This document shows positions 19,670 through 36,693 of a DNA stretch of 43,912 nucleotides, in pieces (positions within the stretch are counted from its first letter, which is position 1; each line of letters begins with the position of its first letter). The notes beneath the pieces were generated by a model that was not told where the DNA came from, did not search any database, and was given only the letters and a program-made list of their open reading frames with translations. The translations under genes were made by a program, and so were the position numbers. This DNA comes from Planctomycetota bacterium (lineage in GTDB: Bacteria > Planctomycetota > Planctomycetia > Pirellulales > Pirellulaceae): the NCBI GenBank assembly GCA_027622275.1, contig JAQBZB010000039.1:1-43912 (forward strand), given 5' to 3'.

Positions 19670-19670
19670 G

Positions 19671-21215: not shown

Positions 21216-21269
21216 GGTCGTGCTCCGGTGTGCCTGTTGAACTCACAATCCAGCGTTATCTTGTCTCTC

Positions 21270-21476
21270 TTATTGTTTCGCGCCCCGTGATGTCGCGTTT
21301 TGTGTCTGCCGCGCTACGCGCGTGATGATACCATCTTCTTGGTCTACAATCGCTGCGTCCCATGAAGCCGCCGGGGCCGTAAGCCGTGCCGGCTCGTCAG
21401 CCGAAAGGACGGCCCGATGTGTCAACGTCGTTGCCATGATACCGGCGGTAGCCTGACAGAATCTGCGACGATCCAT
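21270..21476 (-). pseudogene. Tat-leader stub, probably a gene remnant
   Basis: The ATG at 21476 has GGAAAT upstream and opens MDRRRFCQATAGIMATTL, a twin-arginine-like leader, followed by SADEPARLTAP. The frame then ends after 68 residues with no domain. Many planctomycete secreted proteins begin this way, so this looks like the leader and first residues of a lost gene. A genuine small exported protein cannot be excluded. Confidence 0.4.
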
Positions 21477-21831
21477 TGCTATTTCCAAACCAAAGAACCT
21501 CCGGCAGTAGCTTTGGCACCCGACTCTGGCCGCCTGTCGTGGTGCATAGCCGCGCGATGCTATCATAACCGCTCGTGGAATGTGCGTAGCCGATTTGCAC
21601 AACTTTCTCGGCGCAGCTACGGTACCACCACTGCACCGACCTGATGAAAAGCCGAGGCGAAATGCACGTGATGGGTGTGTCCAGCGGCGACGTGACGGGC
21701 TCCCGCCACGTGTTCGCAATGCTTGCCAATCCATGACAGACTGCGCTGGTGAGTGATTGGGTACCCGCTCCCCTCTGCGGGTCGATTCGCACGCCTTGCA
21801 CTTGGCAAACGGGGTGGTGTGAACAAAGAAT
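21477..21831. other. Intergenic region before the MATE gene
   Basis: The minus-strand frame stays open upstream of the Tat leader, but its composition is basic and repetitive with no motif. I see no hairpin or operator that I would defend. A promoter for the MATE gene is expected here but could not be placed. Confidence 0.35.
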
Positions 21832-23316
21832 ATGCGGATTGATGCCGGACATGCTGTTCTGTCCAAAGATCGCTGCTATCGGCTACTCGACATACCCCGC
21901 TTCGAGAAACAAGAGACAAGCTTGACTGGCCCAACCAACCAAGAGTTGTTTCAACGCATCTGGAGCCTCAGTTGGCCCATCGTCGTTTACCATGTCTTGG
22001 AAATGACCGTCGGGTTCGTCGATTTTCTCATGGTGCGTCCGTTCGGGCCGGAGGCGACGGCTGCCATGGGCCTCAGTCGCCAAGTGACCTTTCTGGTGGA
22101 AGGGGCGGCGATTGCCATCGCAACGGGCGTGATCACGCTGGTGAGCCAGGGCGTTGGAGCGCGCGGCATTCCTGGCAGCGGGCTGCGCGGCATCGATCAG
22201 GTTAACAGCGTTGTTCGACAAAGCGTGTATCTCGTGCTGATCTTGGGACTGCCGACCGCACTGGTCGGCTACTGGCTCAGTCGCCCGTTGCTGCTCGGCA
22301 TGCATGCCGACGCCGGGACGCTGGCGTATGGCACGCCTTACCTGCGTGTGTACTTTTCGGGCATTGTCTTCTTGTGGGGCAATGTAGTGGGGGCCGCAAT
22401 CTTTCGCGGCCAAGGCGACGTGAAGACTCCCCTGAAGCTGGCGCTGGGAATCAACCTGCTGAACGTCGTGGCCAACTACATTTTCATTTTTGGGGCGGGT
22501 CCGGTGCCGGCGTTCGAAGTTCAAGGCGCGGCGATAGGTACAGTGCTGGCCCGGGCCTGCGCGGCGCTGTTGTATTTGGGGCTTCTACTGCGAGGGACAG
22601 GGCTGGCTCGACTTCAAGTGGATCAAGACGCGATGCATCCAAACCGCAATCGCTGGGGATTTGATTTGCAGATGATAGCGAGGATCTTGCGCATCGGAGT
22701 CCCCATGGCCTTGGCCGGTCTGTTGCGGAACGGTTCCCGGTTGGTGTTCTTGGCAATCGTTGGCGTGACTAGTTTGGGAGTTTCGTTTCACGCCGCGATT
22801 GGCATCGGATTGCAGGTGCGTTTGCTCAGCGTCCTGCCTGCAGTTGCCTTTCAAGTCGCCACGGCGACGCTCGTGGGTCAGGCGATTGGGCGAGGAGATT
22901 ATCGGGAAGCGGAAGCGTTGGGGAACCGCAGCTTTCAGTTGTTGGCGCTGATCATGGTCGTGGTGGTGCTGCTGATCATCGTGTTTGCCGGTCCGTTGGC
23001 GGGGTGGCTGATCGATTCGCCGGAAGCCGCCGAGTTGGGAGCCACGGTCTTGCGATGGTTCGCTGTGGCCCAGCTATTCAGCGCGCTGAGCATCGGCACG
23101 CAGGGCGCGCTGATGGGCGCGGGAGACACCGCGCCCACCCTGCGTTATACGCTCGTGTCGCAGTGGTTGGTGATGCTGCCGCTGGCCTACGTCTTGTTGT
23201 ATGCCGGTTGGGTTCCCGGCGGCCCGCTGTTGGCCTGGACCGTAGCGCCGGCGCTCTCGCTGCTGCTCACTCAACGGCGCTGGCGCGGAGGACGATGGAA
23301 AGCCGTTCGCGTGTGA
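21832..23316 (+). CDS. MATE-family efflux transporter
   Basis: A 494-residue polytopic protein with about 12 membrane segments and the internal two-fold repeat of the MATE/NorM family. The first half has LSWPIVVYHVLEMTVGFVD and ALGINLLNVVANYIFIFG; the second has RILRIGVPMALAGLLRNG and FSALSIGTQGALMGAGDT. MATE proteins export organic cations or metabolites in exchange for Na+ or H+. The start is uncertain: an ATG at 21832, or a TTG near 21922 that would remove about 30 non-hydrophobic residues. It is the first gene of the PQQ/dehydrogenase island, with a 118-base gap to the dehydrogenase. A role in moving a product of the island is only a guess from position. Confidence 0.85.
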   Translation: MRIDAGHAVLSKDRCYRLLDIPRFEKQETSLTGPTNQELFQRIWSLSWPIVVYHVLEMTVGFVDFLMVRPFGPEATAAMGLSRQVTFLVEGAAIAIATGVITLVSQGVGARGIPGSGLRGIDQVNSVVRQSVYLVLILGLPTALVGYWLSRPLLLGMHADAGTLAYGTPYLRVYFSGIVFLWGNVVGAAIFRGQGDVKTPLKLALGINLLNVVANYIFIFGAGPVPAFEVQGAAIGTVLARACAALLYLGLLLRGTGLARLQVDQDAMHPNRNRWGFDLQMIARILRIGVPMALAGLLRNGSRLVFLAIVGVTSLGVSFHAAIGIGLQVRLLSVLPAVAFQVATATLVGQAIGRGDYREAEALGNRSFQLLALIMVVVVLLIIVFAGPLAGWLIDSPEAAELGATVLRWFAVAQLFSALSIGTQGALMGAGDTAPTLRYTLVSQWLVMLPLAYVLLYAGWVPGGPLLAWTVAPALSLLLTQRRWRGGRWKAVRV

Positions 23317-23434
23317 CGCCGAGCACTAATGTGTTGCGTTACTTGTTTCGCGCGCCGCGAGTGATATCATGGCGGCTGTCCGAAGTCGAAACGCTACGAA
23401 TTTCAATCTCCTCAGCAAACAGGGAGGCGTTGCG

Positions 23435-25453
23435 GTGACCAAGTACCCTTCTCTTCAATTGATCGCCAACGTCCGGGGCGGATTTGGCATCACGCCGTTG
23501 CTGTTCATCGCGTTGTTCGTGGGAGTCTCCGGTTGCGGGCAAAAGGCGGCCAACCAAGCGCGGCAGCAAGCCGAAGTGGCGCACGAGCGGGCTCAAGTTG
23601 CGACAGCGGAGGCGGAGCAATTACGTCAGGAGTTGGAAGAGTTGAAGAAAGGGGCGAACGAGCCCGATCCGGTCAGCTCGAACGCGCCGCCGGAACCCGA
23701 GCCAGTCGCCGATCCTGAGCCGGCATTCAACGAACCACCCGCAGCGGCAACCGCTGTTGCCATCGAGGCTGCCGAACCGGTGGGACCCGTCGATGACGAG
23801 GACCTCCTAACGGCTCAAGACAACAACGCCAATTGGTTGATGTACGGTCGCACCTACAACAGCCAGCGTTACAGCGGGCTCGATCAGATCAACAAAGACA
23901 ACGTCTCGGAATTGTTGCCAGTCTGGACGTTCCAGACGGGTGTGCTGGACGGCTTTGAATGCTCGCCCTTGGTAATCGACGGCATCATGTACATCACGAC
24001 TCCGTGGAATCACGCCTATGCGATCGATTGCAAAACGGGTTCGCAGCTGTGGCACTATCAAAAGTCGCTGCCGGAGAACCTGGCTCTGTGCTGCGACGCC
24101 GTCAATCGGGGCTTTGCCGTCTATGGCGAAAACCTGTACATGTCGACACTCGACGCGCATCTGGTGTGTCTCGACAAGAACACGGGCGACGAGATCTGGG
24201 ACACCGCGATCACCGCTTACAACGAGAACGGAGAAGAGGAGCAAGACATCTACAAAATGGCGTACAGCGCCACGGTCGCGCCGTTGGTGGTCAAAGGAAA
24301 AGTGATCATCGGCATCAGCGGTGCGGAGTATGGCATCCGCGGATTCATCGACGCCTACAACGCCGAGACCGGTGCGCGGGAGTGGCGTTTTTACACCGTG
24401 CCCGACGCGGACGACGAAGCGGAACATGCCAAAGAGGCGCTGAAGTCGTGGGGAGAAAACTCTTGGCTGACTGGCGGAGGTTCGGCCTGGGTGACCGGCA
24501 CGTATGACCCGGAGTTCAACACACTGTACTGGGGCATCGGCAATCCGTCGCCCGACTTCAACGGAGAAGTTCGCAAGGGAGACAATCTCTACACCTGTTC
24601 AATCCTGGCCCTCAACCCCGACGACGGCACCTACAAGTGGCACTTCCAAAACAGCCCGCACGACGTGTGGGACTATGACGGCGTCAACACGCCAGTCCTG
24701 GTCGATATCGAACGGGACGGACAGCCGATCAAGGCTCTGATCCAGGCGCATCGCAACGGCTACTTCTATTGCCTGAACCGCGAGAACGGCGAGTTCATCT
24801 ACGGCAAACCGTTCTGCGAAGTAACATGGACGGACCGGACGCAAGGCGCGGACGGGCTCGACGCCAAAACAGGCCGGCCGTTCGTCAGCCCCAACGCGCT
24901 GCCGACCGAAGAAGGCGTTCGCGTTTGCCCCGGCGCGGCGGGCGGCAAGGAATGGAACCCCATGGCCTATCATCCAGGCACCGGTTTGGCCTATGTACCA
25001 GTGATCGAGAATTGTGCGAAGTTCACTTCCGGCAAGGCGTTCTTCATCAAAGGTCAACCCTACTGGGGAAGCTCGTTGACATTGATCGACGGCGAGGCGT
25101 CCGGCGCGCTGCGGGCGGTCGATGCGGCCACGGGCGAAATCAAATGGGACGTCGACACGCGTTCTCCGATGGTTGCCGGCGTACTCGCCACCGGCGGTGG
25201 ATTGGTGTTCACCGGCGACGCCGAAGGGTTTCTCACCGCCTACGACGCCAGCTCGGGCGAAGACCTGTGGCATTTCCAATGTGGATCAGGCCATCACGCT
25301 TCGCCCATCACCTACACGCTCGACGGCAAGCAATACCTTGCCGTGTGCGTAGGTTGGGGCGGCTGGACTGCCGGTTTCGCTGGCGACGGCGCCCCGTGGC
25401 TGCGCGACGGTCGCCGGGGAAACACGCTGTTCGTGTTCGCGTTGCCGGATTGA
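23435..25453 (+). CDS. XoxF-like PQQ-dependent alcohol dehydrogenase, lipoprotein type
   Basis: A quinoprotein of the methanol/ethanol family that oxidises an alcohol and passes electrons to a cytochrome c. The GTG at 23435 has AGGGAGG eight bases upstream; the ATG at 23369 has no such site. A lipobox VSGC ends at Cys34, then an Ala/Glu/Gln-rich coiled coil (about 37-72) and a Pro-rich spacer (about 77-118) precede the eight-bladed propeller. Seen in the propeller are the vicinal disulfide Cys219-Cys220 (ALCCDAVNRG), metal ligands Glu298 (SGAEYG) and Asn370 (GIGNPSPD), catalytic Asp413 and Asp415 in WDYDGVN. Asp two residues after the catalytic Asp is the accepted mark of lanthanide-dependent enzymes. 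No heme domain is attached. The substrate is not determined. Confidence 0.88.
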   Translation: MTKYPSLQLIANVRGGFGITPLLFIALFVGVSGCGQKAANQARQQAEVAHERAQVATAEAEQLRQELEELKKGANEPDPVSSNAPPEPEPVADPEPAFNEPPAAATAVAIEAAEPVGPVDDEDLLTAQDNNANWLMYGRTYNSQRYSGLDQINKDNVSELLPVWTFQTGVLDGFECSPLVIDGIMYITTPWNHAYAIDCKTGSQLWHYQKSLPENLALCCDAVNRGFAVYGENLYMSTLDAHLVCLDKNTGDEIWDTAITAYNENGEEEQDIYKMAYSATVAPLVVKGKVIIGISGAEYGIRGFIDAYNAETGAREWRFYTVPDADDEAEHAKEALKSWGENSWLTGGGSAWVTGTYDPEFNTLYWGIGNPSPDFNGEVRKGDNLYTCSILALNPDDGTYKWHFQNSPHDVWDYDGVNTPVLVDIERDGQPIKALIQAHRNGYFYCLNRENGEFIYGKPFCEVTWTDRTQGADGLDAKTGRPFVSPNALPTEEGVRVCPGAAGGKEWNPMAYHPGTGLAYVPVIENCAKFTSGKAFFIKGQPYWGSSLTLIDGEASGALRAVDAATGEIKWDVDTRSPMVAGVLATGGGLVFTGDAEGFLTAYDASSGEDLWHFQCGSGHHASPITYTLDGKQYLAVCVGWGGWTAGFAGDGAPWLRDGRRGNTLFVFALPD

Positions 25454-25498
25454 GCGTTTCCGGTCCCTCTCGCTCCGGCAGACGACGCTCTTCAGGAC

Positions 25499-25602
25499 TA
25501 GAGAATATCGAACAAAGAATGTCGAATGCGGAACGACAGAAAAGCGACAGGCTCTTCACTTCATCATTCAGAGTTCCTTGGTCGATATTCGACATTCATT
25601 GA
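25499..25602. repeat. AT-rich dispersed-type repeat in the operon spacer
   Basis: The 164-base gap between the dehydrogenase and the XoxJ-like gene contains GAATATCGAACAAAGAATG and, inverted near its end, GTCGATATTCGACATTC. The two ends are related by imperfect inverted symmetry. The base composition is more AT-rich than that of the flanking genes. Its presence inside the putative operon may weaken or modulate read-through. Confidence 0.5.
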
Positions 25603-25617
25603 ACGATCGAGACGTAC

Positions 25618-28005
25618 ATGATCAGTTTTGAAACGCCCGCTAGCATGCGAGTAGGTCTTCGCAGCCTGGCCCTTGCGTCCGCTTGTTTTGTGATCCTCCT
25701 GAACACGGGGATCGCAACATCCGACGAGACGTCGAAGGACGCCGACAGCAAGCCGTTGGTCGTGTGCGCTGTGCCCACGGCGATGCCGCGGACGGGTCGC
25801 GCATCGGACGACTCACCGCAAGGTCTTGATGTCGCGGTAGCGCAGCTCGTGGCGAAACAACTCGGGCGGCAGATCGAGTGGCATTGGTGCGCCAGCGCTT
25901 CTTGCTCGTGGAGTTGCATCCGAGATGGCCGCTGTGACCTGGTCATCGGCGTACCGCATGGTTCAGGACCGTCACGCGAACTCGCGTGGAGCGTGCCTTA
26001 CGCCGGCAGCCGCTTCGGGCTTGTCGTTCACAAGGACTCGCAGGGCATCAAGTCGGTCGCAGATCTGGACGGCAAACGAGTGGGAATCGTGAGCGGTACG
26101 GTTGCCTTGTCGTCAGAGGGCCACACGGCGGTTCAATTCAAGACGCGCGAGCAACTCGTGGAAGAGTTCGTCGACCAGCAGCTGGACGCCGCATTTGTCG
26201 ATGACGATTTTGCGGCGTGGTATCTTCACGAGCACCAGGAACTGCCGCTGCGCCGCGTGCCGCAGTACGTCCCCCGCGAGCGCTGGAACATGGCCTTCGC
26301 CGTGCGGGCCAAAGACAAGCCGCTACTGGCCGATATTAATCGTGCCTTGCGAATCGTCTTGTCCAACGGTCAGGTCAGTAAAGCCTTCTCCGAGCAGGGC
26401 GTCGGGTATCGCGCGCCCTTTGCCAACACAGACGGCCGCGAGGTCGTTGAAGACAGCTGGAAGCGGATTCGTGAGCGTGGCGAGTTGGTCGTCAGCATGG
26501 ACCCCGCGAATCTGCCCTACTCAAGCGGGAACGAGGACCAACCCGGATTGGATGTCGAGTTCGCCCGCGCCTTGGCCCAGGAGTTGGATCTCAAATTGCG
26601 CCTGGAGTGGATCGATGTGCAGCGCGAGACTGCGATCGGCGAGTTGCTCGACCGCGAGTGCGACTTAGCCTTTGGTGCCGCGATCGAACCGGCCGCGGTC
26701 GATGACGAGGAAGAACTTGCTGGCAAAGTGATCTACTCGAAGCCGTATTACGGGACGGGCTACTTGCTTATCACGCGCAAAGACGGCCCGAGTGCAAAGT
26801 CCCTGGCCGAGTTGAAAGGCGACAAGTCGCGGCGACTGGGTACCGACGCTGGATCGGTCGCCGATTACCACCTCCGTCAGCGTGGCTATCAGCGGCGGCT
26901 ATTCCGTACGCAGTTGGCCGTGCTCAAATCGCTTCAAGACGGCGGCATCGACTATGCCTACGTCTGGGCCAACGCCGGCTGGGTGTTGCACACGACACCC
27001 GAATTCGAGTTGGAGGTGGTTCCAGGTTACGCGCCGGAAGATCATTGGAACATCGCCATCGCGATGCGGCGGGGGGACGACGAGCTGAAGCGTCATGTGG
27101 ATGCGGCTATCCAGACGCTCGTCTCCCACGGCACCGTGTCGAGCGCGCTGAGCCGTTATCACGTGCCTCACTTTTCGCCCTTCGGTGTTCCAAGTAAGAC
27201 GGATTCGCAATCCGTGCCACCGAAAACCGGTACGATTCACCGCCAGCCAACCGACCGTGGGCTCGAACCACAGATGCAGCGTCGCCAGCAATCAAAGACG
27301 CGGTATGCGGGTCTGGAGCGGCTACGCTCGGCGGGCGAATTGGTCGTCGGGTTGGACCACAATAATCTGCCCTTCTCGACAGCTCACCCCGAAGCATCGG
27401 GTTTGGACTACGAGATCGCTGGTCTGTTGGCCGAACAATTGGGCGTCTCGATGCGCGTCTATTGGGGCTACTCCTCGCACGATTCCTATCCTTCGAAGCT
27501 GGCCAATAAGAAGTTCTGTGACGTGATGCTGGGAGTGATGCCGGACGATCGGTTCGGCAAGCGGGTTATCTATTCGAAGCCGTACTATCATGCCACGTAC
27601 CAGCTTGCCGTTCGCGCCGATCGGGCGGCCCCGGCCACAGACGCTCCCGTCGCCGCCCAGCGCGGACTCGCGGTGCGCGGTCTTGACGGGCGTGACGTGC
27701 GAGCCTATTCAACGCTCGAAGCGATCTTGTCGGCGGTAGCCAAGGATGAAGTGCAGACGGGCTACGTGATTTCGGGCCGCGGGCATTGGCTGGCCGAGCA
27801 GCATTGGCCTGGGGAGTTGAAGTTCATCGGCGGCGGGTCGGAAGCGGTCGATCGTTTTCCGATCTGCGCAGCCGTGCGAAAAGAAGATGCCGACTTGAAA
27901 GCTGCCATTGATGAGGCTCTGGACGAACTGGACAAATCCGGGAAGCTCGCCGAAGTTTTCTCCCGCTGGAAGATCCCGGCTCCTGCTCAAACGCGGGGGA
28001 ACTGA
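25618..28005 (+). CDS. Triple-module XoxJ/MxaJ-like solute-binding protein
   Basis: A 795-residue exported protein built from three tandem family-3 solute-binding domains, about residues 46-268, 288-522 and 573-787, after a signal peptide (about 10-35). Each module opens with an LVV strand; modules 2 and 3 continue with NLPYS or NLPFS, then GLDxE, an acidic CDLAFG or CDVMLGV and IYSKPYYxxxY. That pattern is that of MxaJ/XoxJ, the binding-protein homologues encoded with methanol dehydrogenases and thought to help enzyme activation. Known MxaJ/XoxJ have one module of about 280 residues. A linker (about 523-570) separates modules 2 and 3. Module 1 carries extra cysteines (CASASCSWSCIRDGRC). The cytochrome gene starts seven bases downstream. 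Confidence 0.85.
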   Translation: MISFETPASMRVGLRSLALASACFVILLNTGIATSDETSKDADSKPLVVCAVPTAMPRTGRASDDSPQGLDVAVAQLVAKQLGRQIEWHWCASASCSWSCIRDGRCDLVIGVPHGSGPSRELAWSVPYAGSRFGLVVHKDSQGIKSVADLDGKRVGIVSGTVALSSEGHTAVQFKTREQLVEEFVDQQLDAAFVDDDFAAWYLHEHQELPLRRVPQYVPRERWNMAFAVRAKDKPLLADINRALRIVLSNGQVSKAFSEQGVGYRAPFANTDGREVVEDSWKRIRERGELVVSMDPANLPYSSGNEDQPGLDVEFARALAQELDLKLRLEWIDVQRETAIGELLDRECDLAFGAAIEPAAVDDEEELAGKVIYSKPYYGTGYLLITRKDGPSAKSLAELKGDKSRRLGTDAGSVADYHLRQRGYQRRLFRTQLAVLKSLQDGGIDYAYVWANAGWVLHTTPEFELEVVPGYAPEDHWNIAIAMRRGDDELKRHVDAAIQTLVSHGTVSSALSRYHVPHFSPFGVPSKTDSQSVPPKTGTIHRQPTDRGLEPQMQRRQQSKTRYAGLERLRSAGELVVGLDHNNLPFSTAHPEASGLDYEIAGLLAEQLGVSMRVYWGYSSHDSYPSKLANKKFCDVMLGVMPDDRFGKRVIYSKPYYHATYQLAVRADRAAPATDAPVAAQRGLAVRGLDGRDVRAYSTLEAILSAVAKDEVQTGYVISGRGHWLAEQHWPGELKFIGGGSEAVDRFPICAAVRKEDADLKAAIDEALDELDKSGKLAEVFSRWKIPAPAQTRGN

Positions 28006-28012
28006 CCGGAAT

Positions 28013-28861
28013 ATGAAGACCAGCCAGATCAAGGCACGGGATCATTTTCCTGTCGTCAATTTTCCTGTCGTTGCCGGCATTCTGATCAGCGCGCTCATTT
28101 GCCCTTTGGTTGCGGCTGACGACAACGAAGCGGCGAGCGATCCGGCACCAGAGCAAGTGGCCGCGTTGGCGGAAGGCAAGGCGTTGTACCGCGGTCTGTG
28201 CAGCGGTTGCCACGGCGGCAGCGGTCGCGGCGGCAAAGGGCCGAACTTGACCGACGACCGCTGGCTGCACGGCGACAAAGACGAGGACATCGCCCGCGTC
28301 ATCCAACAGGGCGTACCGAGAACGACGATGAAGAAGCTCGGCGAAGCGTTGGAAGATGAACAGATCGCGAAGATCATCGCCTATCTCCGCCAATTGGGAC
28401 GTGCGCCGACCGACAGTCACTGGCAACCGTACATGTCCGGAGACGCGAAACTCGGGCAGGCGCTTTTCTTCGACGAGAAAGCCAAGGCCCAGTGCGGAAA
28501 ATGCCACACCGTCAACAAACAGGGCGGTCGCGTCGGTCCGGCACTGGACCGCATCGCCGTTCGCCGCTCGCCTGAGTACATCATGGAGTCCATTCTGCAA
28601 TCCTCGAAGTTCATCGATCCGCAGTACGAGGCGGTGCAGGTCGTTACGGATGGCGGTCAGCTGCTGAAGGGCTTGCGAGTCAACGAATCGAATTTCAGTA
28701 TCCAGTTTCGGGAGGAGAACGGGCGTTTCCACTCGTTTCTCAAACGCGATCTGGAAGAATTCCAAGTGCTCAACACGTCGCTGATGCCCGACAATTTCGC
28801 CGAGCAACTGACCGTCAAGCAACTGCACGACCTGTTCGCGTTCCTGATGTCATTGGAGTAG
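28013..28861 (+). CDS. Diheme cytochrome c with Pirellula-type heme-binding domain
   Basis: A 282-residue exported cytochrome with a signal peptide (about residues 14-35) and two CxxCH heme sites. CSGCH at 63-67 lies in a class I cytochrome domain, with Met106 in VPRTTM as possible sixth ligand. CGKCH at 161-165 lies in the TIGR02603-type putative heme-binding domain of Pirellula and Verrucomicrobium, also seen in YIMESILQSSKFIDPQYEA and LLKGLRV. It follows the XoxJ-like gene directly and takes the place where xoxG/mxaG (cytochrome cL) stands in methylotrophs, so it is the likely electron acceptor of the dehydrogenase. The ATG at 28013 lies seven bases after the previous stop; the longer frame overlaps the upstream gene. 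Confidence 0.88.
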   Translation: MKTSQIKARDHFPVVNFPVVAGILISALICPLVAADDNEAASDPAPEQVAALAEGKALYRGLCSGCHGGSGRGGKGPNLTDDRWLHGDKDEDIARVIQQGVPRTTMKKLGEALEDEQIAKIIAYLRQLGRAPTDSHWQPYMSGDAKLGQALFFDEKAKAQCGKCHTVNKQGGRVGPALDRIAVRRSPEYIMESILQSSKFIDPQYEAVQVVTDGGQLLKGLRVNESNFSIQFREENGRFHSFLKRDLEEFQVLNTSLMPDNFAEQLTVKQLHDLFAFLMSLE

Positions 28862-28955
28862 GTTGGGCTTCCAGCTTGGCCCGCTTTCTAGTTGCGACCA
28901 GCGATTCGCTCCGCTAAGCTAACCATTACTGTTGCATCAGATAGAGGAGACCATC

Positions 28956-29111
28956 ATGCAGTGGACCAAGCCTGAGTTTAAGGAAATCTCGCTCGGCGGA
29001 GAGCTAACCGCTTATTGCAATACGGACGACAGCCTGCGACCGACCGCTGAGCGGCCTGTGCCGGCGGAGTCACGGACTGACGCGTACCAGCGGCGCGAAA
29101 CTTCCGTGTGA
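28956..29111 (+). CDS. pqqA: PqqA precursor peptide, extended form
   Basis: This 51-residue peptide is the ribosomal substrate for PQQ. It opens MQWTKPEFKEISLGGELTAY, which carries the KP opening and the conserved Glu-x3-Tyr: Glu16 and Tyr20 are the residues cross-linked by PqqE. The sequence after Asp25 (SLRPTAERPVP and onward to RRETSV) is an unusual tail, since most PqqA are 22-30 residues long. The ATG has AGGAG at seven bases. The stop overlaps the possible GTG start of pqqB, so the two are translationally coupled or nearly so. Confidence 0.88.
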   Translation: MQWTKPEFKEISLGGELTAYCNTDDSLRPTAERPVPAESRTDAYQRRETSV

Positions 29112-29116
29112 CACGC

Positions 29117-30040
29117 ATGCGAGTTCGCATTCTTGGCTCTGCTGCGGGAGGTGGTTTACCGCAGTGGAACTGCCGCTGCGCCAACTGCAAAGCTGTCCGC
29201 GCTGGCTCACCGCATGTTCAGCCTCGCACCCAGTCATCCGTGGCGGTGAGCGCAGACAGTCGCGTCTGGTTCTTGCTGAACGTCTCGGCGGATGTGCGAC
29301 AGCAGCTTTTGGCTTTTGCGGAGCTTTGGCCTCCCCAGCCTAATCGTCGGGGCACGACGATTGGCGGCTGCGTATTGACCGACGCGGAAATCGACCACAC
29401 TAGCGGCTTGCTTCAGCTTCGCGAAGGCTGTCGCTTTGGAGTCTTCAGCACCGCGCTGGTTCACCGCTGGCTTAACCGTTACTTTCCCATCGGAACAATC
29501 TTGGCCGACTTTGCTGATCGGCCCTGGACGGAATTAACTTTGAATGAGGCACTGGAATTGCCGTTACCCACCGGGCATCCCAGCGGCCTGCGGGTCCGGG
29601 CCTTTGAAACCGGACAGGATGCACCGCGCTTTGTCCCAGACGACAACGCAGATCTAACGGGCAGTGTCATCGGCTTGGAAATCACGGATAGCGTCACAGG
29701 CGGCAAACTTGTTTATGCGCCCGGCGTAGCGACCATCTCCGACACGCTCCGGGATGCAGCTCGCGGCGCCAGTTGCATCTTACTGGATGGCACCTTCTGG
29801 ACCGACGATGAGCCGGTTCAGATGGAAATCAGCAGCCGTAGCGCGACAGAGATGGGACACGTTCCAGTGGATGGGCCAAATGGCACGCTCGAGTGGTTAG
29901 GCGGCTTGCCGACCAGGCACCGCGTGTACGTTCATATTAATAACACAAACCCGATGTTAAACGATCGGGGACCGCAGCGCCGGCGTGTGAATGACAAGGG
30001 CGTCCACGTGGGTGCCGATGGCGACGAGTTTGAAGTGTGA
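29117..30040 (+). CDS. pqqB: PQQ biosynthesis protein PqqB
   Basis: A metallo-beta-lactamase-fold protein that hydroxylates the tyrosine-derived part of the PQQ precursor. It has the family opening MRVRILGSAAGGGLPQWNC, a Cys-rich WNCRCANC, the metal motif region LTDAEIDHTSGLLQLREG (about residues 92-109) and the end HINNTNPMLND. Length 307. The ATG at 29117 matches the family start; a GTG at 29108 that overlaps the pqqA stop in a GTGA would add three residues. It is the last pqq gene before the interruption. Confidence 0.93.
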   Translation: MRVRILGSAAGGGLPQWNCRCANCKAVRAGSPHVQPRTQSSVAVSADSRVWFLLNVSADVRQQLLAFAELWPPQPNRRGTTIGGCVLTDAEIDHTSGLLQLREGCRFGVFSTALVHRWLNRYFPIGTILADFADRPWTELTLNEALELPLPTGHPSGLRVRAFETGQDAPRFVPDDNADLTGSVIGLEITDSVTGGKLVYAPGVATISDTLRDAARGASCILLDGTFWTDDEPVQMEISSRSATEMGHVPVDGPNGTLEWLGGLPTRHRVYVHINNTNPMLNDRGPQRRRVNDKGVHVGADGDEFEV

Positions 30041-30411
30041 GTACATATCCCGGACGAATAACGTGGAACTTGTTCGTGGCGGTCCTCGAGCGAGTTGCCA
30101 CCGCCGATCGTCTCTGGATACCTAAGTTGGCCGTCCTTCTGGATGTCTGGAGAACAGGTACGCGCACCCGCGAGCGCCAAAGCTCGCCCAAGTGCCATGC
30201 ACGGTCGGTGCTTTGGCCCGTCGAAACCCAGAAATCGTGACTGCGGGGAAGACGAGGTCAAACCATCACAACGCGGTAGACGCAGAGAGGGCTCGTAGCG
30301 TGTTATAATCGCGAGACTGCGAACCTGGACGGGGCTCAGGCTCGACCCAAATGTGAAATATCGGCGAGGCTTAGAGTCGCGAGCAAACATCGAGAACTGG
30401 ACTAACAACAT
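30041..30411. other. 371-base gap inside the pqq run
   Basis: No gene is seen. The gap holds a short GCCAAAGC/GCTTTGGC inverted repeat (arms 30176-30183 and 30210-30217) and a TATAAT at 30304-30309 that could serve the downstream ATPase. Elsewhere the pqq genes overlap or abut, so a gap of this size marks an insertion scar. Confidence 0.55.
30304..30309 (+). promoter_or_regulatory. Possible -10 box of the ATPase cassette
   Basis: TATAAT followed by CGCG lies about 100 bases before the ATPase start. No good -35 hexamer was found at the right spacing. The same TATAATCGC string occurs before the WD40 gene at 36719. The call is tentative. Confidence 0.35.
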
Positions 30412-31668
30412 ATGAAGATTCTCAAGGTTGAAGTCGAGGGTTATCGGTCATTCAAGTCGCAAACTTGGTGTCCAGGGGATTTGAACGTGCTAATCGGACA
30501 AAATGCGAGCGGCAAGTCCAATCTGCTGCGTGTACTCGAAATCTCACAAGCCGCCGCGAAGGGAAATCTTGGAAAATACGTTCAGCAGGAAGGCGGGATG
30601 GAATCAATTGTCTGGGACGGACAAGCCGACAAAGTTCGCATCCGCATCAAGATGACACCGCTTCCACCGTATTCAGACCCAGAAACGGATGCCCTCACCT
30701 ACGAGTTGGAACTTGCCCGACTCGCCAAGACGAGTTCGTATCGGATCGATCGCGAACTGCTTGGCAACTACTACAAGGTCGAGACCGGCGAAATGCAAGA
30801 ACCATTCAAGTTGCTCGAACGTGATCCGCGGCACGCGGTTGTTTATTCGATGGATTCGAAACGGTTTCAGCACATCCCAACCACGACAACTACTACGACT
30901 CCGTATCCATCGGATGTAAGCCGAATCGAAGCGCCCGAAGATTCACTGTCCGAAGAAGAAACACTTTTGTCCCATGCGGCTGGACCGTTTGCCGCGAATC
31001 GCTTCGTTTCTGAATTTCAGGAGGAACTCGCTTCGTGGAAGATCCACCAAGGATTCCACACGCATCGCGAAGCGGCTATTCGGGCTTCGCAAGTCACGCG
31101 TGCCGACACCCAGGTGAGTCCCGATGGGCAAAACCTCATCTCGGTCTTGCACAGCCTTTATATGAGCAGCCGCGATTTCAAAAGAGAAATCAATGCGGCG
31201 ATGCATAGCGCATTTGGTGACGATTTTGAAGAGTTGGTTTTCCCGCCAGCTGCGGACCAGCGCATTCAATTGCGGATTCGTTGGCGAAGCTTGCGGCGCG
31301 AACTGTCGGCAGCCGATTTGTCAGACGGAACACTGCGGTTTCTTTTCCTCCTGGCAGTGCTCGCCAATCCTGCTCCGCCACCGATAATCGCGATCGACGA
31401 GCCCGAAACAGGGCTACACCCTTCGATGCTGCCGATTATCGCCGAGTACGCGCGAGATGCGTCAAATCGAGCTCAGGTCGTGCTAACAACACATTCCCCA
31501 GAATTACTGGATGCCTTTGGTGAGGAAGTTCCAACAACAACTGTCGTCGAATGGCGTGCCGGCGAAACGACCTTGAGAAATGTCTCCGGTGATGAGTTGG
31601 CATACTGGCTGAAACAGTACACGCTCGGCGAGCTTTATCGCTCGAAGGAGCTGGAGGCCATGCAATGA
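30412..31668 (+). CDS. OLD/AAA_21-type ATPase
   Basis: A 418-residue SMC/ABC-like ATPase. Walker A is GQNASGKS at residues 29-36, after the typical opening VEVEGYRSFKSQTW. The signature is LSDGTLRF, Walker B is PPIIAIDEPETGLHP with Asp329-Glu330, and the H-loop is TTHSPELLDAF. There is a long helical insert between the nucleotide-binding halves. ATPases of this kind power defence and repair complexes such as OLD, RloA-like and PARIS systems. The stop overlaps the next start by four bases (ATGA), so the two products probably work together. The coding sequence looks more AT-rich than its pqq neighbours by eye. Confidence 0.88.
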   Translation: MKILKVEVEGYRSFKSQTWCPGDLNVLIGQNASGKSNLLRVLEISQAAAKGNLGKYVQQEGGMESIVWDGQADKVRIRIKMTPLPPYSDPETDALTYELELARLAKTSSYRIDRELLGNYYKVETGEMQEPFKLLERDPRHAVVYSMDSKRFQHIPTTTTTTTPYPSDVSRIEAPEDSLSEEETLLSHAAGPFAANRFVSEFQEELASWKIHQGFHTHREAAIRASQVTRADTQVSPDGQNLISVLHSLYMSSRDFKREINAAMHSAFGDDFEELVFPPAADQRIQLRIRWRSLRRELSAADLSDGTLRFLFLLAVLANPAPPPIIAIDEPETGLHPSMLPIIAEYARDASNRAQVVLTTHSPELLDAFGEEVPTTTVVEWRAGETTLRNVSGDELAYWLKQYTLGELYRSKELEAMQ

Positions 31669-32291
31669 AGTTTGTTCTCCTAGTTGAAGGGGCCACGGAG
31701 AAGAATGCCGCAGCCGAGTTCCTCAAGCGTTGGCTTGATCCGCAACTTGACCAGGCTGTCGGGATTCAGGTTATTCCGTTCAAAGGCTACGCGCAACTTG
31801 CACGCAAGGTCGTAAAGAAGGCACAGATGTTCCTCGATGGTCCCAAGCACGGAGAGATCATCGCTGTACTTGGCCTGCTTGATCTCTACGGTCCAGGTTT
31901 TTATCCAGACCATGTTACGGAAGCGGATGAACGATTTGAGTGGGGCGTCGATCACTTCCAAAAGCAAGTCGCCCGCGATCGCTTTCGAATGTTCTTTGCC
32001 GTTCACGAGTTTGAGGCATGGCTGCTAAGTCAACCAGAGATTTTTCCTCGTGAAGTGAAGACCTCGCTGCCCGGCAAAGTCGCGAGGCCAGAGACGGTGA
32101 ACTTCGATGAACCACCGGCGAAGTTACTTGACAAGATCTATAAACAAACAGTGAAGCGTGATTACAAGAAAACGACGTATGGTCAGCAGCTATTTCGAAA
32201 GCTGGACCCTGACGTCGCCGCCGAAAAATATCCTTATCTCAAAGAAATGCTAGGCGAGATGTTGAAGATGGCAAAGGCCGCAGGGCTCTAG
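31665..32291 (+). CDS. DUF4276 (Toprim-like) partner protein
   Basis: A 208-residue protein of the DUF4276 family. It opens MKFVLLVEGATEK, with Glu8 as the expected Toprim-type acid. LLDLYGPGF (Asp73) is the second acidic site, and FFAVHEFEAWLLS (His114-Glu115-Phe116-Glu117) is the other family hallmark. DUF4276 genes are often found just after an AAA_21/AAA_15 ATPase gene, and the Toprim relation suggests a nuclease. It is translationally coupled to the ATPase. It is not DUF4435, so it is not a PARIS AriB by family. A role in phage or plasmid defence is inferred only. Confidence 0.85.
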   Translation: MKFVLLVEGATEKNAAAEFLKRWLDPQLDQAVGIQVIPFKGYAQLARKVVKKAQMFLDGPKHGEIIAVLGLLDLYGPGFYPDHVTEADERFEWGVDHFQKQVARDRFRMFFAVHEFEAWLLSQPEIFPREVKTSLPGKVARPETVNFDEPPAKLLDKIYKQTVKRDYKKTTYGQQLFRKLDPDVAAEKYPYLKEMLGEMLKMAKAAGL

Positions 32292-32350
32292 AATATGCCC
32301 TTGTTGATTTTTCTTCCCAATTCATCTTGCAGCTCCCTTACGAGGCAACC

Positions 32351-33061
32351 ATGGATCCTTGGTCCGCCGATGAGTTCACCGAGCGACTACGTGAAGTAGG
32401 CCAGCAGCACTATCACGACAACCACCCGTTCCATGGCTTGATGAACGAAGGCCGGTTGGACCGCGAGCAGATTCAACTGTGGGTCGCCAATCGGTTCTAC
32501 TACCAGAAGAACGTCCCGATCAAAGACGCGATTCTGCTCTCGCGCTGCCCGGTCCGCGAGGTGCGGCGAAAATGGGTGCAGCGGATTCTGGACCACGACG
32601 GATTCGGCGACGATCCGGGCGGCATCGAGAAATGGTTGCGAATGGGCGAGGGGGCGGGCCTCAGCCGCGAGGATTTGGAATCCGAGCGGATGTTGCTGCC
32701 CGGCACGCGCTTCGCCGTGGACGCCTACACGAACTTCGTTGCTACACGTCCATGGATCGAGGGAGTCGCATCGTCGCTGACCGAGTTGTTTGCCCCGGAC
32801 CTGATGACCAAACGACTGGCGGCGTTCGAGAGACATTACACGTGGATCGATCCGGCGGCAATGGAGTACTTCCGTGTCAGGCCTCCGTTGGCCAGGCGGG
32901 ACAGCGAGCATGGCATCGAGCTGATGCACACCTATTGTCGTAGTCGCGAAGAACAGCAACGGGCCATCGCCGCGCTGCGCTTCAAATGCGACCTGTTGTG
33001 GGCTCAACTTGACGCGTTGTACTATCATTGCGTTAATCCGACTCAAGCGTGGCCGTCGTGA
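32351..33061 (+). CDS. pqqC: Pyrroloquinoline-quinone synthase PqqC
   Basis: It performs the last oxidation and ring closure to PQQ without a bound cofactor. Family signatures are HPFHGLMNEGRL near residue 27, WVANRFYYQKNVPIKDA (about 51-67), the helix with RRKWVQRILDHDG and LTELFAPDL with FERHYTWI. Length 236. The ATG at 32351 follows ACGAGGCA; the TTG at 32327 is less likely. pqqD begins inside its last codons, so pqqC, pqqD and pqqE are a coupled trio. It lies 59 bases after the DUF4276 gene. Confidence 0.93.
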   Translation: MDPWSADEFTERLREVGQQHYHDNHPFHGLMNEGRLDREQIQLWVANRFYYQKNVPIKDAILLSRCPVREVRRKWVQRILDHDGFGDDPGGIEKWLRMGEGAGLSREDLESERMLLPGTRFAVDAYTNFVATRPWIEGVASSLTELFAPDLMTKRLAAFERHYTWIDPAAMEYFRVRPPLARRDSEHGIELMHTYCRSREEQQRAIAALRFKCDLLWAQLDALYYHCVNPTQAWPS

Positions 33062-33336
33062 AATCAGAATCCCCGCTGTACTATCCTGTATTCGCGCCCG
33101 GCGCGCGTTATCGCTGGGACGAAGTCCGACAACAGCATCAGATCGTGTTTCCCGAAGGAGTCTTGGTCCTCAACGAATCGGCTGCGGCCGTCGTGCGTCT
33201 GTGCGACGGACGCTCGACGGAAGATGTGATCGTCGCTTTGCGAGAGCAAATTGGCGATGCAGATCCAAGCCGGGACGTGCGTGAGTTCCTTGACCGCTTG
33301 GCGAAGAAAGGACTCCTACGCGATGGAGACTCCTAA
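33049..33336 (+). CDS. pqqD: PQQ peptide chaperone PqqD
   Basis: PqqD is a RiPP recognition element that binds PqqA and presents it to PqqE. The 95-residue protein has the family sequence SPLYYPVFAPGARYRWDE, HQIVFPEGVLVLNESAAAVV and LCDGRSTEDVIVAL. GTG at 33049 and GTG at 33058 (in a GTGA with the pqqC stop) are both possible; neither has a ribosome binding site, which fits coupling. It overlaps pqqE by 14 bases. Confidence 0.92.
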   Translation: MAVVKSESPLYYPVFAPGARYRWDEVRQQHQIVFPEGVLVLNESAAAVVRLCDGRSTEDVIVALREQIGDADPSRDVREFLDRLAKKGLLRDGDS

Positions 33337-34402
33337 TCCCTACAGCCTGCTGGCTGAACTGACCTACCGTTGCCCACTGCAGTGTCCCTATTGCAGTAAT
33401 CCGTTGGAATTGAACCGTTTCCGCACCGAGCTGGACACAGTGGTCTGGCATCGCGTGTTGGACGAGGCGGCACGGTTGGGTGTCGTCCAAGTGCATTTTA
33501 GCGGTGGCGAGCCGTTGCTTCGTCGTGACCTGACCGACTTGGTCCGCACCGCGCGGCAACTCGATCTGTATTCTCATCTCAGTACCAGCGGGCTCGGGGC
33601 TGATCAGGCCAGGCTGGCGAGTCTTCGTGACGCCGGACTGGATGCCTTGCAAATCAGTTTGCAGGACTCTCGGCCACACGAGAACGATTGGTTGGCAGGA
33701 GTACCGTCGTTCGAGAAGAAAAGGCGAGCGATTGAGTCGGCCAAACGACTTGAACTCCCCGTCACGCTCAACATCGTGCTGCATCGGCACAATCTGGATC
33801 GCATCGACGAACTGATCGACCTGGCTTGCCGGTGGAATGTTGACAAGTTGGAACTGGCCCACGCCCAATATGGAGGTTGGGCGTTTCGCAATCGTGCGGC
33901 CTTGCTGCCCACTGAGCAACAGGTCGGGCGCGCCGCCGAAGTTGTCGCCGATGCCAGAGATCGCTTGATCGACAACTTGGAGATCGTCCATGTGCTGCCC
34001 GATTACTTCCAGCAGTTTCCCAAAGCTTGTCTGCACGGCTGGGGCCGCGTCTTCCTGACGGTCGCACCCGACGGGGCCGTGCTGCCGTGTCAGACAGCGC
34101 GGGAGATTCCGGGACTCGTGTTTCCGAACGTGAAAGACACTTCGCTCGAAGAGATCTGGTTCCACGCGCCGGTGTTCCAGCGATTTCGCGGAACCGATTG
34201 GTTGCCCGAACCTTGCCGGAGTTGCGACCGGCGCGAGATCGACTTCGGCGGCTGTCGCTGCCAGGCGTTCCTGCTAACCGGTGACGTCGCGGCCACCGAT
34301 CCTGTTTGTCATCTCGCACCTCAGCATGGAGTCGTGGAAGAGGCGCTCAATGAGGCGGCTAACCAATCAACTGATTTACGGTTCCGCGTCTTCGCATCGT
34401 GA
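33323..34402 (+). CDS. pqqE: PqqA glutamyl-tyrosine cross-linking radical SAM enzyme PqqE
   Basis: PqqE links the Glu side chain of PqqA to the Tyr ring, the first step of PQQ synthesis. The radical SAM motif CPLQCPYC (Cys17, Cys21, Cys24) is followed by HFSGGEPLLRRDL. The SPASM domain carries the auxiliary Fe-S ligands in KACLHGWG, VLPCQTA, CRSCDRREIDFGGCRC and the late DPVC. Length 359 is typical. The ATG at 33323 has AAAGGA upstream and lies in the end of pqqD; a longer frame from 33251 has no motif in its extra part. No pqqF/pqqG protease gene is seen. Confidence 0.94.
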   Translation: METPNPYSLLAELTYRCPLQCPYCSNPLELNRFRTELDTVVWHRVLDEAARLGVVQVHFSGGEPLLRRDLTDLVRTARQLDLYSHLSTSGLGADQARLASLRDAGLDALQISLQDSRPHENDWLAGVPSFEKKRRAIESAKRLELPVTLNIVLHRHNLDRIDELIDLACRWNVDKLELAHAQYGGWAFRNRAALLPTEQQVGRAAEVVADARDRLIDNLEIVHVLPDYFQQFPKACLHGWGRVFLTVAPDGAVLPCQTAREIPGLVFPNVKDTSLEEIWFHAPVFQRFRGTDWLPEPCRSCDRREIDFGGCRCQAFLLTGDVAATDPVCHLAPQHGVVEEALNEAANQSTDLRFRVFAS

Positions 34403-34550
34403 CGCCTTCCATCAGAATCACCGCATGTCCGCAACAGAAACGCGCTGCCCGCGGCACTGATGACGGCTATCGTTTTGTGATTCGCTTTCAGACTGTGCCG
34501 GACAGGGGCAATGACCGGGGCGACGAATGCCACCGCCGTCACCGATTGGG

Positions 34551-34600
34551 CGATAAAGGGGTCGGGAGCATATATTATATGCTCGCTGACCCCTTTATCG
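34551..34600. repeat. 50-base near-perfect hairpin
   Basis: Arms CGATAAAGGGGTC and its complement (13 bp) enclose a small internal bulge and then GAGCATATA-T-TATATGCTC (9 bp around a single T). It lies about 150 bases after pqqE, between convergent genes. The form, with a bulged stem flanked by GGGGTC/GACCCC, recalls REP/REPIN-type elements mobilised by RAYT transposases. It could also act as a terminator. Confidence 0.75.
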
Positions 34601-34666
34601 CTCTCGGCTGCTCGGCGCGGGTGCAACCTGTGTTGCCGGTTTAACTTCTGCACCGATCCGTACCAA

Positions 34667-35674
34667 TTAGGCGTCGCGTTGCCAGCGGAACGTGCCCTTG
34701 AGGCTATCGTTCACCACCGCCCCGTCCGGCCAGTTGCCACGATAGAGCGCGGCGATGCATTGAGCCGCTTCGACACCCATCGCCACGAGCGAGGTTTCGT
34801 CGCCTCCGGCGATGTGCGGGCTGACGACGAGGTTGTCGAGTTGAAAGAGCGGATTGTCCACTGACGGCGGTTCTTGCTCGAACACGTCCAGGCCCGCCGC
34901 ACGAAGGTGTTCCGATTCGAGAGCTTTGTAGAGATCGGCCTCCACCATCAAGCCGCCGCGCGCGGTGTTCAGGAAGATACTTCCGGGCTTCATGCGATTG
35001 AAAGCTTTCGCATTGAACAGTCCTCGCGTTTCGTCGGTCAGCGGCGCGTGGACGCTGACGATATCGCTTTCGGCAAGCAGCCGGTCGAGTTCGACCAGTT
35101 CGATCTTGTGCGATCGTACGAATTCCGCATTCGGGTACTTCTCGGTGGCGAGCACCCGCATGCCCAACGCCACCGCGCGGTAGGCCAGACTGCTGCCGAT
35201 TCGTCCCAGGCCGAAGATGCCCATCGTCTTGCCTCGCGTGGCCATCGGCAAACGACGCGGCCACTGGCCGGCACGAACTTGCTTGTCATTCGAAACGATC
35301 ATTCGGCTGGCGGCGAACATCAACGCCAGCGTCATCTCGGCGACCGCTTCGTGATTCGCGGTGGGAGTGATTGTCACAGGGATACTGTGCGCGGTTGCTG
35401 CTGGCACATTCACGCCGTCGTAACCAACTCCGGCCCGCGCGATCACGCGAAGTGCCGGCGAGGCGGCAAGAACGTTTGGTGTGTAGCCTTCCGATCCCGC
35501 GATGGTTGCGCTGACACCCTGTAGTTCCTCGATGAACTCATCTTCGCCGCCGTGGTTTCTCGCGAGTTCCGGGTTTTTGGGGTAAACGATATCGAAACCG
35601 GCTTCGCGAAGCACGTCGACGTAGCGTTCGGGAACTTCACGCATGGATTCAGGAACAATTAGACAGGTTGGCAT
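34667..35674 (-). CDS. D-isomer 2-hydroxyacid dehydrogenase (phosphoglycerate dehydrogenase-like)
   Basis: A 335-residue NAD-dependent dehydrogenase. The Rossmann motif GLGRIG (about residues 154-159) and the catalytic Arg (NTARGGLM), Glu (LDVFEQEPP) and His (SPHIAGGD) are all in place. Substrate could be 3-phosphoglycerate or another 2-hydroxyacid; there is no ACT/regulatory domain as in long SerA, so I give no symbol. It is convergent with the pqq run. Confidence 0.88.
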   Translation of the reverse strand: MPTCLIVPESMREVPERYVDVLREAGFDIVYPKNPELARNHGGEDEFIEELQGVSATIAGSEGYTPNVLAASPALRVIARAGVGYDGVNVPAATAHSIPVTITPTANHEAVAEMTLALMFAASRMIVSNDKQVRAGQWPRRLPMATRGKTMGIFGLGRIGSSLAYRAVALGMRVLATEKYPNAEFVRSHKIELVELDRLLAESDIVSVHAPLTDETRGLFNAKAFNRMKPGSIFLNTARGGLMVEADLYKALESEHLRAAGLDVFEQEPPSVDNPLFQLDNLVVSPHIAGGDETSLVAMGVEAAQCIAALYRGNWPDGAVVNDSLKGTFRWQRDA

Positions 35675-35828
35675 GTGGTTTAAATCTCTTGACTTGGCGC
35701 GAGTTAACGAAACGTAGACACTGGAAGGGGCTGGCCGGTACGAAGGCGAACAGTATATCCAAAATCGCTCCCTCGGGCAGGACCATGTGTTTACTGATAT
35801 CGCGAATGGAAGGCGTTTGCGCGTTGGT

Positions 35829-35883
35829 ACGATGGCCTTCCAAGGCTGTCGATTGTTTCACGACGGCCTTGGAAGGCCATCGT
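35829..35883. repeat. Inverted repeat, 23-bp arms
   Basis: Arms 35829-35851 and 35861-35883 (ACGATGGCCTTCCAAGG...) are complementary with one mismatch and a nine-base loop. It lies between two divergent genes, 42 bases before the DUF1614 start, so it may act in transcription control or simply be a mobile palindrome. Confidence 0.75.
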
Positions 35884-35924
35884 CCAGGTTCCAACTTCGA
35901 TACTTTGCTGACAAAGTAGGTGGC

Positions 35925-36650: not shown

Positions 36651-36693
36651 TTCGGAGCCCATCATAGGTTGGTGGCCAAGTTTGGTAAGTTCT

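What the first reader, a model, noticed from the sequence alone, without database searches (positions are those of the whole stretch)
21832..34402. A PQQ and lanthanide-type alcohol oxidation island in a planctomycete
On one strand lie a MATE transporter, a PQQ alcohol dehydrogenase, a XoxJ-like binding protein, a cytochrome c, and pqqA-B-C-D-E. Methylotroph xox/mxa clusters have the order F, J, G, but the proteins here are remodelled: a lipoprotein enzyme, a triple XoxJ, and a diheme cytochrome with a Pirellula-type domain. Known is the PQQ pathway and the XoxF/XoxJ/XoxG roles; the joint function here is inferred. No formaldehyde or C1 carrier genes are visible, so the alcohol may not be methanol.
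Basis: partly seen in the sequence, partly recalled or inferred. Interest (0 to 1): 0.75.

Follow-up and report, generated by a model that had tools for sequence, protein, structure and literature searches.

The report
Laterally acquired planctomycete alcohol-oxidation gene cluster
A planctomycete carries a borrowed set of genes for oxidising an alcohol outside the cytoplasm, with a lanthanide-type enzyme, an unusual triple binding protein and the genes that make its PQQ cofactor, but the set has been split by an inserted pair of defence-like genes.

Summary
The cluster is real. The PQQ dehydrogenase has the full lanthanide-type metal quartet (E, N, D, D; motif WDYDGVN), a lipobox-like Cys and a CC motif. 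A three-repeat XoxJ-like protein, a two-CxxCH cytochrome and pqqA-B-C-D-E follow. MATE is not beside the dehydrogenase in two relatives.

The enzyme groups with neither XoxF nor PedH/ExaF: trees and AU tests place it in a separate planctomycete clade, so substrate and metal are inferred. Fae and MCH genes exist elsewhere in the genome, but Fae is in 56 of 60 sampled genomes, so it says nothing about methanol.

The full-length triple protein occurs in 3 of 98 genomes searched. Two same-genus genomes lack it and lack PqqB over cut-off. Synonymous differences from a marine MAG of another genus are 0.27-0.43 per site for 8 island genes, 0.67-0.70 for 4 core genes: the island moved laterally.

Best reading: a nearly self-sufficient, membrane-anchored, probably lanthanide-dependent alcohol oxidation module; a new variant of a known kind. 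No metal, substrate or expression data were obtainable.

The parts
23435..25453 (+). PQQ-dependent alcohol dehydrogenase, lipoprotein (ORF opens at 23369; GTG 23435 is the likelier start because the aligned upstream ATG in G018 runs into a stop)
   Evidence: TIGR03075 640.6 bits vs cut-off 480.05; closest solved sequences 6zcv/6zcw; metal quartet and CC motif; start
25618..28005 (+). three-repeat XoxJ-like (SBP_bac_3) periplasmic binding protein, 795 aa
   Evidence: three SBP_bac_3 stretches; TIGR03871 199.5 bits for the whole protein, just under cut-off 212.15; repeats kept by position in three genomes
28013..28861 (+). c-type cytochrome, two CxxCH motifs: CBB3-type domain plus TIGR02603 putative heme-binding domain; start 28013 inferred
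28956..29111 (+). pqqA, 51-aa precursor with an E-x3-Y core (ELTAY; the motif's role is recalled)
   Evidence: TIGR02107 23.1 bits vs cut-off 20
29117..30040 (+). pqqB (ATG 29117; ORF opens at GTG 29108)
   Evidence: TIGR02108 362.8 bits vs 245
30294..30364 (+). 71-base non-coding stretch shared with G018 at the same place (79% identical), upstream of the inserted AAA gene in both
30412..31668 (+). inserted AAA_21 ATPase, HEC-01A-like
   Evidence: AAA_21 2e-34; PADLOC HEC-01A 1.2e-65, best of 111 matching families
31665..32291 (+). inserted DUF4276 (TOPRIM-like) protein, HEC-01B-like
   Evidence: DUF4276 2.4e-28; PADLOC HEC-01B 2e-12, all 7 matching families are HEC-01B
32351..33061 (+). pqqC (ORF opens at TTG 32327)
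   Evidence: TIGR02111 320.9 bits vs 240
33049..33336 (+). pqqD
   Evidence: TIGR03859 64.2 bits vs 46
33323..34402 (+). pqqE, radical SAM/SPASM (ORF opens at TTG 33251)
   Evidence: TIGR02109 499.8 bits vs 381.35
34607..34631 (.). 25-base sequence at the right edge of the island, repeated beside an HIBADH-like gene on another contig of the same genome (G000:C45:1286-1310)
21832..23316 (+). MATE transporter; neighbour, membership not supported
   Evidence: MatE 4.6e-47; no match beside the dehydrogenase in G018 or G093

Best explanation
A laterally acquired periplasmic alcohol oxidation module that is nearly complete in itself. PqqA to PqqE make PQQ. The XoxJ-like triple binding protein helps load PQQ and metal into the apo-dehydrogenase or hold it. 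The lipoprotein dehydrogenase, anchored in a membrane, oxidises an alcohol with PQQ and most likely a lanthanide ion held by Glu, Asn, Asp, Asp. Electrons pass to the two-CxxCH cytochrome encoded next door and on to respiration. Shown: the genes, their family membership, the ligand residues, purifying selection (dN/dS 0.10-0.21 for seven of eight genes), and lateral transfer. Inferred: PQQ made and used, metal identity, substrate, the chaperone role, the electron path. The AAA/DUF4276 pair is a later passenger inserted between pqqB and pqqC and is not part of the oxidation machinery.
For: Gene identities over curated cut-offs. Metal quartet E-N-D-D plus CC motif in the window enzyme and its two orthologs. 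Order adh-xoxJ3-cyt kept in G018 and G093; pqqA-B and pqqC-D-E also in G018. G035 has pqqABCDE-cyt-adh contiguous, with the same cytochrome domain type. dN/dS against G018 is 0.10-0.21 for adh, xoxJ, cyt, pqqA, pqqB, pqqC and the part of pqqE compared, 0.54 for the short pqqD. Lateral transfer: pS 0.27-0.43 for 8 island genes against 0.70, 0.70, 0.70 and 0.67 for DHQS, Trx-NHL, MCH and Fae between G000 and G018; even against same-genus G002 seven core genes give 0.54-0.70. Same-genus G001 and G002 have no match to the triple protein and no PqqB over the cut-off. Synteny with G002 stops at the pqqE/2-Hacid_dh boundary. XoxJ/MxaJ are suggested to bind partly folded apo-enzyme for PQQ and metal insertion (PMC12997753, passages read).
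Against: No expression, metal or activity data. A D-x-D motif does not prove lanthanide use: membrane glucose dehydrogenase has it and is predicted to be promiscuous (PMC11996626, passages read). The enzyme groups with neither characterised lanthanide clade. The operon is interrupted by a 2.3-kb insert, and promoter-like hits in 21200-34800 are at chance level (3 found, 3.7 expected). pqqD is under weaker constraint. G093 has adh-xoxJ-cyt but no PqqB over cut-off and no PqqC match.
Confidence: 0.72

Rival explanations
1. A true xox/mxa methanol oxidation cluster (XoxF, XoxJ, XoxG) feeding the planctomycete H4MPT formaldehyde pathway.
For: Order F-J-G; D-x-D; Fae and MCH in the same genome.
Against: Outside XoxF/MxaF; grouping with four XoxF rows alone rejected, AU p 4.7e-5, and joining the whole clade p 0.008. 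MoxJ model 103.1 vs cut-off 258.1 and MoxG model 50.2 vs 147.8 bits. Fae is in 56 of 60 genomes searched, while the triple protein is in 3 of 98, so Fae carries no signal.
Confidence: 0.1
2. A PedH/ExaF-type (ethanol and larger alcohols) system that belongs to that family.
For: Closest solved sequences are 6zcv/6zcw. The best plasmid match, Azospirillum thermophilum at 43.6%, is a pedF-SBP-ADH-pqqABCDE locus.
Against: Separate from a 100/100 PedH/ExaA clade; grouping with its Ln members alone rejected, AU p 3.8e-8, and joining the whole clade p 0.008. PedF model 23.4 vs 122 bits. The SoxYZ-like carrier and zinc metallohydrolase of the Azospirillum locus are not among the ten island proteins scanned; they were not sought elsewhere in the genome.
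Confidence: 0.15
3. A decaying acquisition: the insert has cut the pqq operon and the genes no longer work together.
For: Insert between pqqB and pqqC here and a larger one in G018; pqqD dN/dS 0.54; patchy distribution.
Against: No stop inside any of the named reading frames; dN/dS 0.10-0.21 for seven of the eight compared genes, pqqE only in part; both genomes with the insert keep pqqC, D and E.
Confidence: 0.13
4. The window is a mis-joined metagenome contig and the island belongs to another organism.
For: Flanks are syntenic with two different contigs of G002 (C1 and C114). A 25-base repeat lies at the right edge. The assembly has 555 contigs.
Against: GC3 of island genes (0.62-0.75) overlaps that of seven other genes of the genome (0.68-0.78). 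A homologous island sits in another genome of the same family. The 25-base repeat is internal to both contigs, not at contig ends.
Confidence: 0.07

Closest known systems
PedH/ExaF lanthanide ethanol dehydrogenase and the ped/exa cluster
   Same: D-x-D metal quartet; neighbouring cytochrome and binding protein; pqqABCDE adjacent in Azospirillum thermophilum
   Different: 43% identity and a separate clade; no SoxYZ-like carrier or metallohydrolase among the ten island proteins scanned; lipoprotein; triple binding protein; different cytochrome
XoxF-XoxJ-XoxG methanol dehydrogenase cluster
   Same: gene order F, J, G; same metal ligands; XoxJ-type domains
   Different: 37-40% identity to the five XoxF rows; outside the clade; the binding protein has three domains; the cytochrome has a second TIGR02603 domain
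G035 pqq-linked dehydrogenase and the second dehydrogenase of the window's own genome (C26)
   Same: nearest in the tree (99/98), D-x-D; G035 also has pqqABCDE and the same cytochrome type
   Different: 44-47% identical; no XoxJ-like match in the G035 stretch; the C26 protein carries an N-terminal cytochrome-like stretch
HEC-01 candidate defence system (PADLOC)
   Same: AAA ATPase plus DUF4276-type partner, adjacent and overlapping
   Different: HEC-01B match is weak (2e-12); the ATPase also matches many other defence ATPase models; function untested; sits inside a pqq operon

Membership tests
TIGR03075 PQQ methanol/ethanol dehydrogenases | curated score cut-off | tested here: met
   640.6 vs 480.05 bits
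Lanthanide-type PQQ alcohol dehydrogenases | second Asp of D-x-D and the Glu, Asn, Asp ligands | tested here: met
   E, N, D, D at PedH 199/281/323/325 columns
Lanthanide-type PQQ alcohol dehydrogenases | activity with Ln3+ | not testable with these tools
   needs purified enzyme
XoxF (methanol dehydrogenase) | placement in the XoxF/MxaF clade | tested here: not met
   AU p 4.7e-5 for grouping with four XoxF rows, 0.008 for joining the whole clade; groups named after seeing the tree
PedH/ExaF | placement in the PedH/ExaA clade | tested here: not met
   AU p 3.8e-8 and 0.008; groups named after seeing the tree
Published numbered PQQ-ADH types (Keltjens scheme) | grouping with reference sequences of a type | not tested
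   reference set not on hand
XoxJ/MoxJ | NCBIfam TIGR03871 and TIGR03870 cut-offs | tested here: not met
   199.5 vs 212.15 and 103.1 vs 258.1 bits; repeats 21-28% identical to four single-domain references, two of them called XoxJ from their place beside xoxF
XoxJ/MoxJ | SBP_bac_3 domains, gene next to a PQQ dehydrogenase | tested here: met
   adjacency in three genomes
MoxG or PedF cytochrome | TIGR03872 or TIGR04494 cut-off | tested here: not met
   50.2 vs 147.8; 23.4 vs 122 bits; XoxG as such had no model among the hits
PQQ biosynthesis pqqABCDE | each protein over its curated cut-off | tested here: met
HEC-01 defence system | both parts match and are adjacent | tested here: inconclusive
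   1.2e-65 and only 2e-12; no curated cut-off is shown by that library

The most novel reading that the evidence does not exclude
A third, unnamed lanthanide alcohol dehydrogenase lineage that travels between planctomycetes as a cassette with its own PQQ synthesis and with a dedicated three-lobed maturation protein. Each lobe of that protein would handle a different step: apo-enzyme, metal, PQQ.
Probability: 0.3. Interest if true: 0.68.

Novelty: new variant of a known kind. Interest (0 to 1): 0.5.

Why it matters
PqqB over the family cut-off was found in 3 of 246 genomes searched among relatives, and a dehydrogenase match at E 1e-60 or better in 1 of 392 sampled genomes of the phylum, this one (at most the top two candidates per genome were scored, and the known carriers G018, G035 and G093 gave no match row, so they were evidently not in that sample). 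If active, the module is a small, mobile route by which non-methylotrophs gain lanthanide-type alcohol oxidation. It also gives a natural three-domain version of XoxJ with which the unsettled role of XoxJ/MxaJ could be tested domain by domain.

Tried and rejected
AlphaFold2 on the triple binding protein with its two orthologs gave mean pLDDT 40.5 and was not used; no fold search was run. Rfam found nothing at gathering level in 18000-36000. Promoter and terminator scans gave chance numbers. The named-genome scan with the triple-protein alignment found two full-length relatives and one weak alphaproteobacterial match; its two search patterns came from only three sequences, so distant relatives could be missed. 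A paper search for HEC-01/DUF4276 listed nothing relevant (8 of 15 papers shown).

The 71-base shared stretch: a search of six genomes listed two other weak places (G002:C68, G018:C344) but not the G018:C319 copy that pairwise comparison had found, so that search is not exhaustive. The two other places lie near ORFs that do not look like the AAA/DUF4276 pair (read by eye, not scanned), so the stretch may be a promoter rather than a mobile-element end.

The repeat tree is partly unresolved: R1 (98/99) and R3 (100/100) copies cluster, the three R2 copies do not form a supported group, and long branches were flagged. The by-position reading rests mainly on 83-86% identity between window and G018 copies.

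Considered and rejected: MATE as a module member; C1 genes as evidence for methanol.

Rows dropped or redone: the two Fae rows and the VitK2 row were broken by stop removal and recomputed; the other rows were recomputed with stops kept and no conclusion changed. GC3 of the cytochrome gene was taken out of frame and recomputed. In one search the window row was taken from a gapped alignment; it was de-gapped and trimmed to 564 residues. Four planctomycete rows and one plasmid row of the tree were trimmed by hand. Of 580 plasmid records with a match, 40 were listed, 10 regions fetched and 9 used in the tree (L096, without annotation, left out). Of 33 solved sequences matched, 10 were used.
Full report
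What is there. On the + strand: a PQQ alcohol dehydrogenase (23369-25453), a 795-aa protein with three SBP_bac_3 stretches (25618-28005), a cytochrome (to 28861), pqqA (28956-29111), pqqB, then an AAA_21 ATPase and a DUF4276 protein, then pqqC, pqqD and pqqE to 34402. The five PQQ proteins all pass NCBIfam cut-offs.

The enzyme. The ORF passes TIGR03075. Its closest solved sequences are 6zcv/6zcw. At the four metal positions of PedH it has Glu, Asn, Asp, Asp. The second Asp is Ser in ExaA, Ala in the two MxaF rows and Thr in the three quinohaemoproteins aligned. The PDB titles name 6dam and 6oc5 as lanthanide-dependent XoxF, and PMC11845868 gives the PedH ligands and the Ser/Thr rule for ExaA/PedE (passages read); the other Ln/Ca labels are recalled. 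All five planctomycete enzymes compared carry D-x-D. A 24-row tree puts the window enzyme with G018 and G093 (100/100), then with G035 and a second dehydrogenase of its own genome (99/98), outside XoxF/MxaF and PedH/ExaA. AU tests reject grouping with four XoxF rows (p 4.7e-5) or with the four PedH-like Ln rows (p 3.8e-8); joining either whole clade gives p 0.008. The groups were chosen after seeing the tree, so the weaker values deserve caution. The Cys of a lipobox-like VSGC is at the same column in both orthologs.

The binding protein. Of 98 genomes searched, 24 have a match: three are full-length (this genome, G018 at 83%, G093 at 64%) and 21 have only short weak matches. The repeats are 24-31% alike within the protein. 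Within each position the window and G018 copies are 83-86% alike, so the tripling is older than this pair and maintained; the tree itself leaves the R2 copies unresolved. The protein falls just under the TIGR03871 cut-off and far under MoxJ. Proposed roles for XoxJ/MxaJ, loading PQQ and metal into apo-enzyme, come from PMC12997753 (passages read) and are carried over by inference; PMC10875860 calls XoxJ a protein of unknown function (passages read).

Lateral transfer. Between this genome and G018 (another genus), synonymous differences per site are 0.34, 0.43, 0.34, 0.37, 0.41, 0.37, 0.27 and 0.27 for adh, xoxJ, cyt, pqqA, pqqB, pqqC, pqqD and part of pqqE. They are 0.70, 0.70, 0.70 and 0.67 for DHQS, Trx-NHL, MCH and Fae. 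As a scale, seven core genes differ by 0.54-0.70 from G002 of the same genus. The neighbouring Meth_synt_2 gene is also low at 0.36 and is 89% identical in G018 but at most 46% in the two same-genus genomes. With G093 the island shows no such deficit: pS 0.63-0.72 against 0.61 for DHQS, the one core gene compared. G001 and G002 have no match to the triple protein and no PqqB over the cut-off; G001 is 93% complete with 8% contamination, G002 99% with 3%. PqqB is over the cut-off in 3 of 246 genomes: this one, G018, G035. Synteny with G002 covers 34667-43632 and 3830-8721, on two different contigs, and no ORF between them had a match in the stretches fetched. In G002 the gene next to 2-Hacid_dh is a 3-hydroxyisobutyrate-dehydrogenase-like gene (name from recall). 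Its counterpart here is on contig C45, beside a 25-base copy of window 34607-34631. The window's left part and C45 are not connected in the assembly, so the full event is unresolved.

The split pqq operon. In G035 and in Azospirillum thermophilum pqqB and pqqC overlap by four bases. Here 2.3 kb and in G018 10.8 kb lie between them. G018 keeps a degraded copy of the start of pqqC just after pqqB (32 of 37 positions identical to its own pqqC start), and both genomes share a 71-base stretch just before an AAA gene. No pqqC remnant was found after pqqB in the window. The two AAA proteins are alike only over about 50 residues. An insertion at the start of pqqC in a common ancestor of the two islands, followed by turnover of its cargo, fits this. 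It is an inference from two genomes. The window pair matches HEC-01A and, weakly, HEC-01B.

Substrate. Fae is in 56 of 60 genomes searched and MCH in 6 of 6, this one included; H4MPT-type genes in planctomycetes are long known (PMC5020050, passages read). They therefore do not point to methanol. The alcohol is unknown.

Context in print. D-x-D PQQ dehydrogenases are reported from 14 of 33 phyla in ocean MAGs (PMC11996626, passages and section 17 read); the word planctomyc- does not occur in its main text. Searches for planctomycete + XoxF + lanthanide (20 of 24 papers listed), planctomycete + PQQ + alcohol dehydrogenase (15 of 16) and tandem XoxJ (6 of 6) listed no paper whose title or abstract start describes this cluster. 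Of those papers, passages of PMC10994693, PMC6544822 and PMC12997753 were read; supplements were not searched.

Verdict. A genuine, laterally transferred, probably lanthanide-type alcohol oxidation module: a new variant of a known kind.

Noticed in passing
window 34552-34602: A long near-perfect inverted repeat (AAAGGGGTC arms around ATATATTATAT) lies between pqqE and 2-Hacid_dh, at the island's right edge; a 15-base piece of it occurs once in the window with up to 2 mismatches (0.12 expected) and exactly in none of the 125 loci fetched by then.
   Followed up: partly
window 20151-21215: A cobalamin-independent methionine-synthase-like gene shares the low synonymous divergence with G018 (pS 0.36), although in G018 it lies on a different contig from the dehydrogenase.
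   Followed up: partly
L043 (reverse complement) 7616-7677: Degraded copy of the pqqC start just after pqqB in G018, beside a 10.8-kb insert with DUF1501, PSD1/PSCyt2, FGE-sulfatase, PPC and a short AAA gene.
   Followed up: yes
L044 (G093): A genome with adh-xoxJ-cyt but no PqqB over cut-off and no PqqC match; it may depend on external PQQ or the MAG (94% complete) may be missing them.
   Followed up: partly
G000:C26:8977-11673 (L046): A second D-x-D PQQ dehydrogenase in the same genome, with an N-terminal cytochrome-like stretch and a C-terminal extension; it could use the PQQ made by this island.
   Followed up: partly
relatives: 29 genomes (G035 among them) have a nearly full-length PqqB-like match of E 5e-40 to 6e-27, below the curated cut-off; in the three loci checked no other pqq gene matched nearby.
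   Followed up: partly
window 13682-18494: Two large overlapping ORFs with bacterial Ig-like domains and RHS repeats, in a stretch without synteny to the same-genus genome G002 in the regions fetched.
   Followed up: no
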